Positions 1,561 to 10,919 of a stretch of 13,938 nucleotides of DNA are shown here, piece by piece. The notes under the pieces were generated by a model. The model was not told the origin of the DNA, searched no databases, and worked only from the letters and a program-made list of their open reading frames with translations. A program made the position numbers and the translations under genes. How positions within the stretch are numbered: the first letter of the stretch is position 1; each line of letters begins with the position of its first letter. The stretch lies in the NCBI RefSeq assembly GCF_000160855.1, contig NZ_GG700752.1:163842-177779 (forward strand). The letters are read 5' to 3'. Source of the DNA: Lactobacillus helveticus DSM 20075 = CGMCC 1.1877. Its GTDB lineage: Bacteria; Bacillota; Bacilli; Lactobacillales; Lactobacillaceae.

Positions 1561-1855
1561 AAAGAAAAAGCCCTTCGCTCCCTATAATCCAGGGACGAAA
1601 GGCTTTTTTCCGCGGTACCACCCATATTGTCTAATTATATAGACCTCTTTATGGAGCACAATCATGCCCCACCGGTGTGGTAACGTGCCGGAGACGTCTC
1701 AACCTACTTTAAGAATTGTTATTTCGGTGAGCTGCTAAAAGTGTTTTTCAATAATCCAGGGTCTATTAGTTTCGCACTAACACTAATTCACTGGAGAGAA
1801 ATAGATTATTTACTCGTCTTTTTCATAGCCTTTTAATTTATTTGATATTTATTTG
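1561..1855 (-). promoter_or_regulatory. T-box riboswitch leader of asnA, specifier AAC (Asn)
   Basis: Reading the minus strand, the hallmark T-box TGGGTGGTACCGCGG lies at 1624-1610. It is followed by a terminator: arms at 1604-1591 and 1583-1569, loop GGATTAT, then a U-rich run. Stem I is visible upstream: AATAATC and GATTATT pair, with CCAG/CTGG above, enclosing a loop-E-like AGACGAGTA on the 5' side. The 3' side of the specifier loop reads GAAAAACAC, so AAC (1745-1743), followed by A, is the specifier. Uncharged tRNA-Asn should stabilise the antiterminator and allow asnA expression. T-box assignment is certain. The exact specifier register and 5' end are my reading of the fold. Confidence 0.93.
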
Positions 1856-3107: not shown

Positions 3108-3181
3108 TCGGGAAAACAGGATTCGAACCTGCGACCCCCTGGTCCCAAACCAGGTGCTCTACCAAACTGAGCCATTTCCCG
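3108..3181 (-). tRNA. tRNA-Pro (anticodon TGG)
   Basis: The minus strand reads CGGGAAATGGCTCAGTT at the 5' end. The anticodon arm is CCTGG-TTTGGGA-CCAGG with anticodon TGG, the T-arm contains GGTTCGAATCC, and the acceptor 3' strand is TTTCCCG with discriminator A (position 3108). All four arms pair. The 3' CCA is not encoded. It is the second gene of a two-tRNA unit, eight bases after tRNA-Arg, and is followed by the terminator at 3065-3094. With anticodon UGG it can read most or all proline codons. Confidence 0.97.
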
Positions 3182-3189
3182 TTTTTAAG

Positions 3190-3263
3190 TGCGCCCTGAA
3201 GGATTTGAACCTTCAACCTTCTGATTCGTAGTCAGACACTCTATCCAGTTGCGCTAAGGGCGC
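3190..3263 (-). tRNA. tRNA-Arg (anticodon ACG)
   Basis: The minus strand reads GCGCCCTTAGC at the 5' end. The anticodon arm is TCTGA-CTACGAA-TCAGA with anticodon ACG (A34 is normally converted to inosine, reading CGN codons), the T-arm contains GGTTCAAATCC, and the acceptor end is AGGGCGC with discriminator A at 3190. The 3' CCA is not encoded. It is the first gene of the tRNA-Arg/tRNA-Pro unit and has its own strong promoter at 3280-3307. Confidence 0.97.
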
Positions 3264-8306: not shown

Positions 8307-9706
8307 CTAATCTATTGTTAGTAGCTTCTGTTCCTTAATCAGATAGTTTGATTGACAAAATTCAGTTAAGAACTTCCGATTATGAGAAGCAATAATACAT
8401 GTAAAGTGCGAGTCTTTTAGCATTTTAGCCAGAGCTATTACGCTTTCTGGATCTAAATAATTAGTAGGTTCGTCAATTAGCAGAATAGTTTCGTGGTCAA
8501 GGTACAATTGTTTAAGTAGAGCTAGCTTAGCAAATTCTCCACCGCTTAAATTTTTTATTTTAGTAAATAAATCAACAAGCATATCCATTTTGACTAATAA
8601 ACGCTTAATATCGGTTTTACCTAAAATTGTTTCTGTAAAAAAGTCATCTACTGTTTCATAGCTTTGTTGTTTGTTTAAATTTAAACCAATATAAGTTGCT
8701 TGAGGTAGTAGATGCTGATGATTAAAGTAATTCTTTAAGTATTTGAGTAAGGTAGTTTTGCCTGAACCATTCGGTCCAATTAACCCTAGCGATTGTCCTG
8801 TACATAAAGTTAATGCAGTAATATTTAAAATTGTTTCATGTCTAGGGCTAAGTAATTCATATATCTTAATAGAAAAAGTAGTCGATTTTTTGTACCAGTT
8901 TTTGAATTCAGGTAATTGAATATGGTGCTGATATACATGTCTTTTTCCAGGGAGATTACGCAATTCTCTTTCTGCACGCTTGACGCGACTGTTTAATCCT
9001 TTTTGAACATGATCATGACTGCGCGAGGTAAAACGGTCTAGTACTATCTTTCTGAGACTTAAAGTGATTATAATTGTTGCTCTTTTGTTGTAGAGCAACG
9101 ATTTTATCATTGATCTTATGCTGTAAAAGCTCTCTTTTTTCATTGAAATTGATCACAGACTGGTTATTAATCTGATGTTGTTCTAAGTATTGACTATAAT
9201 TTCCAGGGAAATGAATCACTTTATTGGGCTGAAGGATAATAGTCTTTTGACATAAACGATTAATAAAATCTAAATCATGACTAGCAACTAATAATGCACC
9301 ATTATAGTTTTTTAATAAATAAAGTAAGTTTTCAATGTTGTTTTCATCCAAGTATACAGTTGGCTCATCTAATAGTAATAATGATCCAGGTAGCCAAATT
9401 GTATTTTCGATTAAAGTGAGTCGCTTCTCTCCAGCACTTTTAAAATTATTAATTGTATCAGTATAATCAATTTGAGGTATATAGTTAATCTCACCATGAT
9501 GAATTATACGACCATGATCCGGTTGAATTTTATTACGAATTAAATTTAACAGTGTTGATTTACCAATGCCGTTTGGTCCTATTAAAACAATACGTTCCAT
9601 CTACAGCAATGGAAAAGCTTAAATCAGTGAATAAATTTCTATTTGGATAAGAAAAAGCAACATGATTAATACTTAATATTGTTTTATTTAGTTGTGGTTG
9701 TGACAT
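8307..9706 (-). pseudogene. ABC-F family ATPase, broken by two frameshifts
   Basis: ABC-F proteins are soluble twin ATPases that act on the ribosome; many relieve antibiotics bound at the peptidyl-transferase centre. The gene starts at ATG 9704-9706 (MSQPQLNKTILSINHVAFSY) behind a weak AGG. Near 9598-9606 the frame shifts by one, leading into NBD1 (Walker A GPNGIGKST, signature SAGEK, Walker B LLLLDEPT, switch SHD). Near 9031-9039 it shifts again, by one in the same sense, into the linker and NBD2 (GPNGSGKTT, LSGGE, LLIDEPTNYLD, SHN) ending at 8307. There is no transmembrane part. NBD1 has only about 15 residues between its Q-loop and signature, where ABC-F proteins usually have several tens, so an internal deletion is also likely. 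Restored length would be about 466 residues. The leader ORF and attenuator at 9712-9791 support a resistance-type role. The family is sure; the subclass and drug are not. Confidence 0.85.
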
Positions 9707-9711
9707 AATAA

Positions 9712-9769
9712 CCTGCTTTTTTATGAAAAGTCAGGACTTGTCATTCTGACTAACGACAGTTTGACAAGT
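9712..9769 (-). promoter_or_regulatory. erm-like translational attenuator in front of the ABC-F gene
   Basis: Four segments on the minus strand can form alternative hairpins. Hairpin 1:2 pairs ACTTGTCA (9769-9762) with TGACAAGT (9743-9736), with an inner CTG/CAG (9759-9757 with 9748-9746). Hairpin 3:4 pairs CCTG-a-CTTTT (9735-9726) with AAAAG-CAGG (9720-9712), burying the AGG of the ABC-F ribosome binding site. The alternative hairpin 2:3 pairs AGTCAG (9751-9746) with CTGACT (9734-9729) and excludes both. Segment 1 lies inside the leader ORF at 9750-9791, so a stalled ribosome would open 1:2, allow 2:3 and free the start. Pairings are seen; function is inferred from erm and ABC-F attenuators. 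Confidence 0.62.
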
Positions 9770-9791
9770 TATTTTTAATAATCCTAACCAT
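9750..9791 (-). CDS. putative 13-residue leader peptide of the ABC-F gene
   Basis: ATG (9791-9789) opens the frame MVRIIKNNLSNCR and closes at TAG (9752-9750), 43 bases before the ABC-F start. Upstream is GGGTGGG (9802-9796 on the minus strand), whose GGTG fits the anti-SD weakly, at a workable distance. It begins about 25 bases after the predicted transcript start. Codons 8-10 (Asn-Leu-Ser) coincide with the first arm of the attenuator hairpin, which is why I call it a regulatory leader rather than a chance ORF. I recognise no known stalling motif in the peptide, and expression is unproven. Confidence 0.5.
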   Translation of the reverse strand: MVRIIKNNLSNCR

Positions 9792-9822
9792 AATCCCACC
9801 CAATCTAAATTAAGTTACCTTA

Positions 9823-9828
9823 ATTATA
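9823..9828 (-). promoter_or_regulatory. probable -10 box of the ABC-F leader transcript
   Basis: A consensus TATAAT lies on the minus strand at 9828-9823. The nearest -35-like hexamer, TTGCTT, is only 15 bases upstream, so the -35 is uncertain. The predicted start near 9816 gives a leader of about 110 bases. Confidence 0.5.
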
Positions 9829-9851
9829 AAAGATTAAAAAATAAAGCAAAT

Positions 9852-9884
9852 AAAAAATGGCAGTTTAACTTGAACTGCCATTTT
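9852..9884 (-). terminator. rho-independent terminator of the YdcF-family gene
   Basis: On the minus strand, AAAATGGCAGTT (9884-9873) pairs perfectly with AACTGCCATTTT (9865-9854) around a 7-base loop, followed by further T. It starts just after the stop of the gene at 9888 and shields the ABC-F promoter downstream. Confidence 0.9.
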
Positions 9885-9887
9885 AAA

Positions 9888-10919
9888 TTAGAAGTTAAAT
9901 GCTGCAGCAATGATTGTCATTACTGCGAAAAATCCGGTAACTGTAATTTGAATTCTCTTGGTAATAACTAAATATGCGATGAATTCTCGCACAAAGGCAT
10001 TCAAGGTGAAGTACCATTTGGTTTTAGCTCCGTAGCCAATACATTGCAATCCTTGTCGTTTTGCCAAAACTAGAGCACGGTAAACGTGGTAAGAATTAGT
10101 GACGATGCAGAACTTGCTATTTGGTTTCATTAAGGCATATGAAAAGCGCAGATTTTCATTAGTAGTTCTAGATTTGTTCTCAATGATGATATCTTCTTTG
10201 GGGATGCCCAAGTTGATTGCGTATTCGGCCATAGCCTCTGCTTCTAGGATATCTTCGCCTGGACCTTGGCCACCAGACATGATTAATTTTGAACCAGGAT
10301 TCTTTTGGTAGATTTCTATTCCCCGGGTAATTCTTGCGGCTAAAAGTGGCGTTACCGTTTTTCCCATAATTCCTGCACCAAGTACAACGACGTAATCAAG
10401 ATGAGGAACATACCAGTTGATTAAATTGATCCAGGCGGTTAACGTGTACATCATCATAATAGTTACTAAGTAGATGATAACGAGCCACAAAAATCCATAA
10501 GGATAAACAAGCCATGAATCGTGACTGAATTTGCCTAATTGTGGGTAGAAGAACAAAAAGAAAATAATGACAATTCCCATGGCCAGTGACAAATAATTTG
10601 TCCAACGATTGCCTTCTTTACGAATAATTTTTATGCCATCATATAAAAACATAATAATCAGAGTAAAAGCAAAAACGGTGACTCCTAAAGCGACCGCTGC
10701 TAAGCCAAATACAAGAAGCGGCAAAATCCAATCTTTATAATGGGGATCAAGGTCTGCAATGTTAACTAGTACAGTTGCCGCAAAAAGTGCAAGACTGAAA
10801 AGTGTTAAGACAGACATAAAACCGGATTTAAGCGACCGTCGCTCATGCGTCAATATCAAAATAAAATATCCTAAAAATACTATAAATATTAAAAATGTAA
10901 TTAAAATCGGATAGGACAT
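9888..10919 (-). CDS. YdcF/SanA-like (DUF218) multi-pass membrane protein
   Basis: The N-terminal half holds about six hydrophobic helices. The second half (about residues 178-325, counted from an upstream TTG at 10931) is a DUF218 domain of the YdcF/SanA/ElyC family, followed by a last C-terminal helix. Domain motifs: DYVVVLGAG, PLLAARITRGIEIY, SGGQGPGE, EAEAMAEYAINLGIP, ENKSRTTNEN and VTNSYHVYRA, which form the nucleotide-like pocket. Family members are linked to cell envelope maintenance, but the reaction is unknown. I place the start at ATG 10917-10919 (343 residues, MSYPILITFL). The frame is open four codons further to TTG 10929-10931, but that codon overlaps the promoter -10. No SD precedes the ATG; the mRNA appears almost leaderless. 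It is a single gene with its own terminator, divergent from the membrane-protein pair. Confidence 0.85.
   Translation of the reverse strand: MSYPILITFLIFIVFLGYFILILTHERRSLKSGFMSVLTLFSLALFAATVLVNIADLDPHYKDWILPLLVFGLAAVALGVTVFAFTLIIMFLYDGIKIIRKEGNRWTNYLSLAMGIVIIFFLFFYPQLGKFSHDSWLVYPYGFLWLVIIYLVTIMMMYTLTAWINLINWYVPHLDYVVVLGAGIMGKTVTPLLAARITRGIEIYQKNPGSKLIMSGGQGPGEDILEAEAMAEYAINLGIPKEDIIIENKSRTTNENLRFSYALMKPNSKFCIVTNSYHVYRALVLAKRQGLQCIGYGAKTKWYFTLNAFVREFIAYLVITKRIQITVTGFFAVMTIIAAAFNF

What the first reader, a model, noticed from the sequence alone, without database searches (positions are those of the whole stretch)
9712..9791. Leader ORF and mutually exclusive hairpins: an erm-type attenuator before a dead ABC-F gene
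A 13-codon ORF (MVRIIKNNLSNCR) contains segment 1 of a four-segment switch. Pairing 1:2 (8 bp plus an inner 3 bp) coexists with 3:4 (9 bp with one bulge), which hides the ABC-F SD. Alternative pairing 2:3 (AGTCAG/CTGACT) would free it. Ribosome stalling on the ORF therefore predicts induction. I know of no described leader with this peptide, and the sensor is intact while its target gene is broken.
Basis: partly seen in the sequence, partly recalled or inferred. Interest (0 to 1): 0.75.

Follow-up and report, generated by a model that had tools for sequence, protein, structure and literature searches.

The report
Worn antibiotic-sensing leader in Lactobacillus
A tiny gene and folding RNA that probably let Lactobacillus sense ribosome-blocking antibiotics sit in front of a broken resistance-type gene; intact relatives carry the same switch, and some use it to control a quite different enzyme.

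Summary
Confirmed: a 13-codon ORF (9791-9750, minus) and the two hairpins precede an ABC-F gene broken into three frames. Relatives support an attenuator. The 3 intact orthologs found in 75 genomes of one genus (taken as Lactobacillus) carry matching leaders (MRIRKNNLSNCH, MRIRKNLSNVR, MKLRKNLSNR) and SD. A homologous cassette (MRLRRKASQFSR type) precedes an acetyltransferase (GNAT) gene in 6 further genomes. MR[L/I]R fits the Arg/Lys-X-Arg/Lys macrolide-arrest motif of ErmDL and MefAL.

Two corrections. First, the best-kept pairing is segment 1 with the SD (1:4) around hairpin 2:3; 1:2 is only half paired. A ribosome at the arrest codon frees the SD in silico in 6 of 9 leaders, not in G763, G281 or the window. 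Second, the sensor here does not look intact: of 10 leaders only the window's lacks the charged motif and breaks a 2:3 pair. In the model its SD opens only for ribosomes at codons 10-13.

So this is probably a decayed member of a Lactobacillus leader family that serves ABC-F and GNAT genes. No drug response has been tested.

The parts
9845..9850 (-). -35-like hexamer TTTGCT (3 of 6); the nine relatives have 4-6 of 6
   Evidence: not listed by the stricter scan
9823..9828 (-). -10-like TATAAT, 31 nt upstream of the leader ATG; best pair at 28-33 nt in all ten loci
   Evidence: a pair as good at 28-33 nt in 13 of 500 shuffles for the window, 0-39 of 500 for the others
9795..9801 (-). SD-like GGGTGGG of the leader ORF; GGTG is aligned and invariant in the four ABC-F leaders
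9750..9791 (-). leader ORF MVRIIKNNLSNCR*, homologous to MRIRKNNLSNCH*, MRIRKNLSNVR*, MKLRKNLSNR*
9762..9770 (-). segment 1 (AACTTGTCA, codons 8-10): pairs with segment 2 (1:2) or with the SD (AACTTG:CAGGTT, 1:4)
9736..9751 (-). segment 2 (AGTCAG and TGACAAGT); one 2:3 pair is an A x C mismatch here only (1 of 10)
9726..9735 (-). segment 3 (CCTGACTTTT): pairs with segment 4 (3:4) or segment 2 (2:3)
9710..9720 (-). segment 4 with the ABC-F SD GCAGG (9716-9712)
8307..9706 (-). broken ABC-F gene, three frames (9706 to a stop at 9562-9560; 9600-9013; 9143-8307)
9854..9884 (-). terminator-like hairpin just after the upstream DUF218 gene (not part of the attenuator); no other terminator-like site found in 9600-9950

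Best explanation
This is a decayed copy of a Lactobacillus translational attenuator. In the working relatives a short leader ORF starting MR[L/I]R or MKLR is translated first. Without drug the ribosome finishes, and the end of the leader ORF (segment 1) folds back on the main gene's SD around hairpin 2:3, or 3:4 forms beside 1:2, so the gene is off. [quoted passage not shown] In the window the target ABC-F gene is broken, and the leader lacks the motif's second charged residue, one 2:3 pair and a good -35. It most likely no longer works as an early-stall sensor. Shown by comparison or computation: conserved ORF and pairing, promoter-like box, in-silico SD release in most relatives. Inferred: drug stalling, induction, resistance, loss of function.
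For: The 3 intact orthologs found among 75 genomes have the leader, with codon-sized indels and mostly synonymous or conservative changes. Promoter-like pair at the same distance in 10 of 10. In the 10-leader alignment 1:4 + 2:3 is 93.8% paired, one pair of each helix changes on both sides, slid controls give 19-50%. A ribosome mask at codon 3 lowers SD-opening cost by 2.8-5.1 kcal/mol in 6 of 9 leaders, reached by 0-1 of 150 shuffles each. M[RK]x[RK] starts: 2 of 199 short ORFs upstream of 93 other ABC-F loci, against 3 of 9 (the leaders) at the 3 orthologs. The same cassette precedes a GNAT gene in 6 genomes. The window is the only row breaking the 7 counted 2:3 pairs, and masks at codons 2-9 raise its SD-opening cost from 2.3 to 4.2-6.3. 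Arrest motif: PMC4335068, PMC8298421, PMC10314930 (passages).
Against: G763, the closest ortholog, with an intact gene, shows no codon-3 relief in the shuffle test (-0.4), nor does G281 (0.1); over other settings G763 ranges from -1.7 to 2.8 and G281 from -3.3 to 0.5. Unmasked SD-opening cost is not above shuffles in the window (71 of 150 as high), G763 (63) or G281 (137). The covariation score does not tell the two schemes apart (0.186 for 1:4 + 2:3, 0.189 for 1:2 + 3:4), and the number of pairs with a change on both sides is no higher than in shuffles (378 of 500 and 274 of 500). In the shared columns 1:4 has a G x G mismatch in all six GNAT leaders. Masks at codons 10-13 lower the window's cost to 0.6-1.2, so a late stall might still open it. 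No expression or drug data. Only one sequence of the window's species was seen, so the leader change could be strain-specific.
Confidence: 0.68

Rival explanations
1. The window leader still works: it senses a drug that stops ribosomes with little sequence preference (pleuromutilin, lincosamide, streptogramin A) or late in the ORF, so the charged motif does not matter and only the target gene is dead.
For: CplR's uORF is only MR[I/M] and is thought likely to be stalled by such drugs (PMC10201436 passages). The ABC-F is nearest to Vga and Msr types. Masks at codons 10-13 lower the cost of opening the window SD.
Against: Masks at codons 2-9 do not. The late-codon opening depends on RNA behind the ribosome: in folds of the downstream RNA alone 3:4 stays. 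The 2:3 pair broken here is kept in the 9 relatives.
Confidence: 0.18
2. The hairpins are a conserved RNA element with another role (mRNA stability, protein binding, fixed SD sequestration) and the short ORF is incidental.
For: The 2:3 hairpin is the best-conserved piece; RNAalifold alone returns only it.
Against: The ORF keeps frame, stop, SD and peptide through codon-sized indels. The MRLR start recurs in a different leader architecture.
Confidence: 0.07
3. Transcription attenuation rather than translation attenuation.
For: Known for ABC-F genes: msrD (PMC10314930, passages); cplR uses both kinds (PMC10201436, passages).
Against: The only terminator-like site in 9600-9950 lies just after the upstream gene. 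The hairpin pairs the SD itself.
Confidence: 0.05
4. Chance ORF and chance hairpins.
For: Fold z-score in the window is only -2.36; SD-opening cost is ordinary.
Against: Conservation in 3 of 3 orthologs and 6 GNAT loci.
Confidence: 0.02

Closest known systems
ErmDL / ErmKL and MefAL (Mef(E)L) leaders (MTHSMRLR..., MTASMRLR)
   Same: Short leader with MRLR, an Arg/Lys-X-Arg/Lys macrolide-arrest motif (PMC4335068, PMC8298421, PMC10314930, passages); in relatives of the window the peptide starts directly with MR[I/L]R or MKLR
   Different: No MTxS N-terminus; erm(K) and mef(E) act through transcription attenuation (PMC4335068, passages). The window copy has R-I-I-K, not R-X-R
CplR / VmlR / LsaA uORFs of ABC-F genes
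   Same: uORF upstream of an ABC-F gene; the cplR uORF is MR[I/M], with an anti-SD element and translational beside transcriptional attenuation (PMC10201436, passages)
   Different: Leaders here have 10-13 codons, the anti-SD lies inside the leader ORF, and no terminator was found between leader and gene
ermC translational attenuator (ErmCL)
   Same: SD exposed when a ribosome stalls on the leader (PMC10219788, figure legend passage); four-segment layout recalled
   Different: The best-kept off-state here is 1:4 + 2:3, so 2:3 is present in both states in eight of ten leaders; peptide unrelated

Membership tests
Translational attenuator (erm/cplR type) | short leader ORF with SD, conserved in homologs | tested here: met
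Translational attenuator (erm/cplR type) | main SD hidden in the drug-free fold | tested here: met
   hidden in the predicted fold (window mean unpaired probability 0.05), but the opening cost is not above shuffles in the window, G763 and G281
Translational attenuator (erm/cplR type) | ribosome on the leader frees the SD | tested here: inconclusive
   in silico: 6 of 9 leaders at codon 3; window not at codons 2-9, lowered at 10-13
Translational attenuator (erm/cplR type) | drug-dependent induction | not testable with these tools
   needs reporter or toeprinting
Macrolide +X+ arrest leader | Arg/Lys-X-Arg/Lys near the start of the leader | tested here: not met
   window MVRIIK; present in 3 of 3 orthologs and 6 of 6 GNAT cassette leaders
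Antibiotic-resistance ABC-F (ARE-ABCF) | score above curated NCBIfam cut-offs (NF000355, 380 bits) | tested here: not met
   intact homologs P0005, P0010, P0009 score 297.2, 282.8, 298.1; best named subfamilies are Msr and Vga, also below cut-off
Antibiotic-resistance ABC-F (ARE-ABCF) | sequence kinship to resistance factors of known structure | tested here: met
   best PDB matches 7nhl (lincosamide-streptogramin A resistance protein, 3e-61), 5zlu (macrolide efflux protein), 6ha8 (ExpZ), 7nhn (Lmo0919); that these are Vga, Msr and VmlR types is recalled
Antibiotic-resistance ABC-F (ARE-ABCF) | confers drug resistance | not testable with these tools
   gene broken here; intact homologs untested
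Rfam families | match to any family at gathering score in the leader | tested here: not met
   only a T-box and two tRNAs elsewhere in the window

The most novel reading that the evidence does not exclude
Lactobacillus has a small regulon of exchangeable MR[L/I]R leader cassettes that sense ribosome-blocking drugs. Besides ABC-F proteins it drives a GNAT acetyltransferase not known to act on ribosome drugs, in two architectures (a four-segment cassette and an 8-codon MRLRxxAF leader with one hairpin). That would point to a new induced resistance or ribosome-protecting enzyme. The window would show how sensor and effector decay together in a dairy species.
Probability: 0.35. Interest if true: 0.75.

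Novelty: new variant of a known kind. Interest (0 to 1): 0.55.

Why it matters
The relatives show one stall-sensing leader cassette placed in front of two unrelated genes in Lactobacillus, which marks the GNAT gene as a likely ribosome-drug response gene worth testing. The leader architecture (SD-blocking sequence inside the leader ORF, two off-states) is simple to test with reporters. The window looks like a natural case of sensor and target decaying together, useful for judging cryptic resistance genes in food bacteria.

Tried and rejected
Rejected: chance (conservation); transcription terminator; a known Rfam element; plasmid or phage carriage (no DNA match to 8307-9850 in either collection; tblastn of the C-terminal piece against plasmids gave 2188 records, each below 60% identity). 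A viral-contig scan for a 16-base leader piece gave 15 matches, none scored by the RNA model at E <= 0.1: chance. A class-wide protein search (398 genomes) gave 10 matches of 30-32% and an order-wide one (395 genomes) gave one of 34%, both with only up to 4 candidates scored per genome; the eight class loci shown and L091 have no MR.R leader. The RNA model over 330 genomes of the family gave 8: 6 GNAT leaders and 2 weak hits that I read as a terminator after a ribosomal-protein gene and a phage gene (gene labels recalled); the three ABC-F genomes are not among those 8, so presumably were not drawn. Structure prediction and fold search were not used.

Counted sets: the SD-release test used 9 of the 10 leaders (G210 was read later, and is only in the alignment, the forced folds). 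The outermost 2:3 column pair (58/83), unpaired in 7 of 10, was left out of the structure. L118's GNAT lacks its N-terminus beside the match; its leader was read separately as L146. L101, L102 and L150-L155 repeat loci already counted. L097 (30%) has no MR.R leader; L098-L100 have a different ORF (MRIQLTSKQAMEIA).

Full report
WHAT IS THERE. The window is from Lactobacillus helveticus or a close relative: a 267-residue protein named for that species is 100% identical to the last ABC-F frame over 96% of its length, and its 90%-identity cluster has 53 member sequences. On the minus strand a 13-codon ORF, MVRIIKNNLSNCR*, runs 9791-9750, followed by the ABC-F start at 9706. The ABC-F gene is in three frames: 48 codons, then 9600-9013, then 9143-8307. 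A partial 439-residue relative at 98% identity and full-length relatives at lower identity exist, so the break is not general to the family. The hairpins 1:2 and 3:4 are the MFE, but z is only -2.36 (2 of 200 shuffles as good) and the SD is no better hidden than in shuffles, so the fold alone would not carry the claim.

RELATIVES. Of 75 genomes of the genus of G464, 7 had a match at E <= 1e-40: three orthologs (99, 57 and 55% identical to P0005) and four distant ABC-F genes at 30-34%. I take the genus to be Lactobacillus because five genomes of the preceding draw encode an adenylosuccinate lyase 86-87% identical to the window's, and because the G761 contig has the length of the contig of P0010, named L. 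colini. All three orthologs have a leader 79-82 nt upstream: MRIRKNNLSNCH* (G763), MRIRKNLSNVR* (G816), MKLRKNLSNR* (G761), each with an AAGGTG SD, a TAG stop and the main SD GCAGG. Differences are codon-sized indels, synonymous changes (AGG/AGA, TTG/CTG, TCA/TCC/TCT, AAC/AAT, CGT/AGA, AAA/AAG), conservative ones (R/K, I/L) and a few at the C-terminus. G763 has the window's neighbours on both sides; the other two lie elsewhere. Among 199 short ATG ORFs upstream of 93 other ABC-F loci, 2 begin M[RK]x[RK]; at the 30 GNAT loci it is 11 of 71, of which 8 are the leaders below and 3 (L126, L128, L130) are not leader-like.

A SHARED CASSETTE. A DNA search with the G763 leader over the same 75 genomes was run at E <= 10, so all 75 gave matches, nearly all chance. 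It found G816 (80%) and, weakly (E 0.002-0.06 in five genomes), leaders upstream of a 137-residue GNAT acetyltransferase; it did not find the G761 leader. A protein search with that GNAT gave matches in 28 of 75 genomes; six close relatives (85-100%) belong to the cassette, with leaders MRLRRKASQFSR (G612, G458), MRLRRKASQFSH (G484), MRLRRKASQFGH (G281, G210) and MRLRTEASQFSR (G451); in G210 the gene is displaced after its first codons. None of the three ABC-F genomes has so close a GNAT. Four less similar GNATs (45-51%) have 8-codon leaders MRLRTNAF, MRLRLVAF, MRLRTIAF and MRLCTIAF. There the last codons can pair with the GNAT SD in one hairpin, and a ribosome at codon 3 frees it in 3 of 4 (relief 2.7-6.9, at most 2 of 150 shuffles as good), but not in L124 (-1.3, 137 of 150). 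The other GNAT loci read show no such leader. The GNAT matches RimI below cut-off; its function is unknown. An RNA model over 330 family genomes found the 6 GNAT leaders plus 2 weak hits.

STRUCTURE. In the 10-leader alignment the structure 1:4 (segment 1 with SD) around 2:3 is paired in 93.8% of cells (1:4 88.3%, 2:3 98.6%); slid controls give 19-50%. One pair of each helix changes on both sides (GC/AU; GC/AU/GU). Against shuffled columns, percent paired, cells changed on both sides and covariation score stand out (0 of 500), but the numbers of such pairs (378 of 500 as high) and of pair types (495 of 500) do not. For 1:2 + 3:4 the covariation score is the same (0.189 against 0.186), 3:4 is paired in all cells, and 1:2 in only 52.5%. 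So percent paired, not covariation, favours 1:4 + 2:3. RNAalifold alone returns just 2:3. In the GNAT leaders 1:4 can also form in another register (CTAGCC:GGTTAG), which the forced folds used. The free RNA thus has two off-states, and a ribosome over segment 1 can leave 2:3 with an open SD. Forced folds give 1:4 + 2:3 as the better off-state in G816, G761 and the six GNAT leaders, and the 3:4 state in the window and G763. With the ribosome at codon 3, SD-opening cost falls by 2.8-5.1 kcal/mol in 6 of 9 leaders (0-1 of 150 shuffles as good); G763 gives -0.4, G281 0.1, and the window, at codon 4, -2.5. Over codons 3-8, two footprints and four 3' lengths, relief is positive in every setting for G816, G761, G612, G484 and G451 and in all but two for G458; it ranges from -1.7 to 2.8 in G763 and -3.3 to 0.5 in G281, and is -4.8 to -2.1 in the window. 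In the window masks at codons 2-9 make the SD harder to open (4.2-6.3 against 2.3), while codons 10-13 lower the cost to 0.6-1.2.

MECHANISM. The leaders of the relatives begin with Arg/Lys-X-Arg/Lys. MRLR is the erm(K) stall site (PMC4335068, passages), and short MRLR peptides are described as arresting with macrolides (PMC8298421, passages). The same source reports that with erythromycin the motif is less critical than with telithromycin in ErmDL, so loss of one Arg does not prove loss of sensing. For ABC-F genes, cplR uses a uORF MR[I/M] with translational and transcriptional attenuation (PMC10201436, passages), and msrD a leader with transcriptional attenuation (PMC10314930, passages). The drug class sensed here is open. 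The best promoter-like pair ends 28-33 nt upstream of the leader ATG in 10 of 10 loci. A pair as good at that distance occurs in 0 of 500 shuffles for the three ABC-F orthologs, 13 for the window and 3-39 for the GNAT loci. So the leader is probably transcribed.

THE WINDOW COPY. Of 10 leaders it is the only one with R-I-I-K instead of +X+, the only one breaking a counted 2:3 pair, and the one with the weakest -35 match (3 of 6). With a broken target gene this fits joint decay. One strain was seen, so this is inference.

LITERATURE. Eight full-text searches: none of the papers listed is, by title and start of abstract, about such a Lactobacillus leader; for MRIRK together with 'leader peptide' there were 0 papers. 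Searches listed only 12 of 42, 12 of 35, 8 of 26 and 8 of 11. Only listings and the passages named above were seen, and most subscription papers are not held, so absence is not proof.

VERDICT. A real, conserved leader attenuator of a known kind, in a new variant.

Noticed in passing
L116, L117, L119, L120, L121, L146: A leader cassette homologous to the window's precedes a GNAT acetyltransferase in six genomes; in G210 the leader is intact but the gene is displaced after its first codons (insertion-like).
   Followed up: partly
L122, L123, L124, L127: A second leader architecture: 8-codon MRLRxxAF ORFs with a GGAG or GGGG SD, whose last codons can pair with the SD of another GNAT gene; L127 has MRLC, and L124 keeps MRLR but has a weak hairpin.
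   Followed up: partly
L116-L121 leaders and L126: The GNAT leader tail RKASQFSR/H resembles the C-terminus of ribosomal protein S9 (ARKASQFSKR; Pfam PF00380). In G767 (L126) a related GNAT lies just downstream of the S9 gene, so the leader may derive from an rpsI end.
   Followed up: partly
L147 1874-2909: In G763 the DUF218 gene upstream of the intact ABC-F appears in two frames (165 and 206 codons), whereas in the window it is one 347-aa ORF and the ABC-F is the broken one.
   Followed up: no
L098, L099, L100: Another ABC-F lineage of the genus (520-residue frames, 29-34% identical) has a near-identical upstream ORF (MTM)RIQLTSKQAMEIA.
   Followed up: no
window 1588-1835, minus: T-box leader (Rfam RF00230, E 9.9e-26) upstream of an AsnA-type aspartate-ammonia ligase gene (511-1524); two tRNA genes at 3108-3263.
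   Followed up: no
window 9808-9825: A perfect short inverted repeat (AATTAAG-GTAA-CTTAATT, seen by eye) overlaps the -10 box and probable transcript start of the leader; possible operator or 5' hairpin.
   Followed up: no
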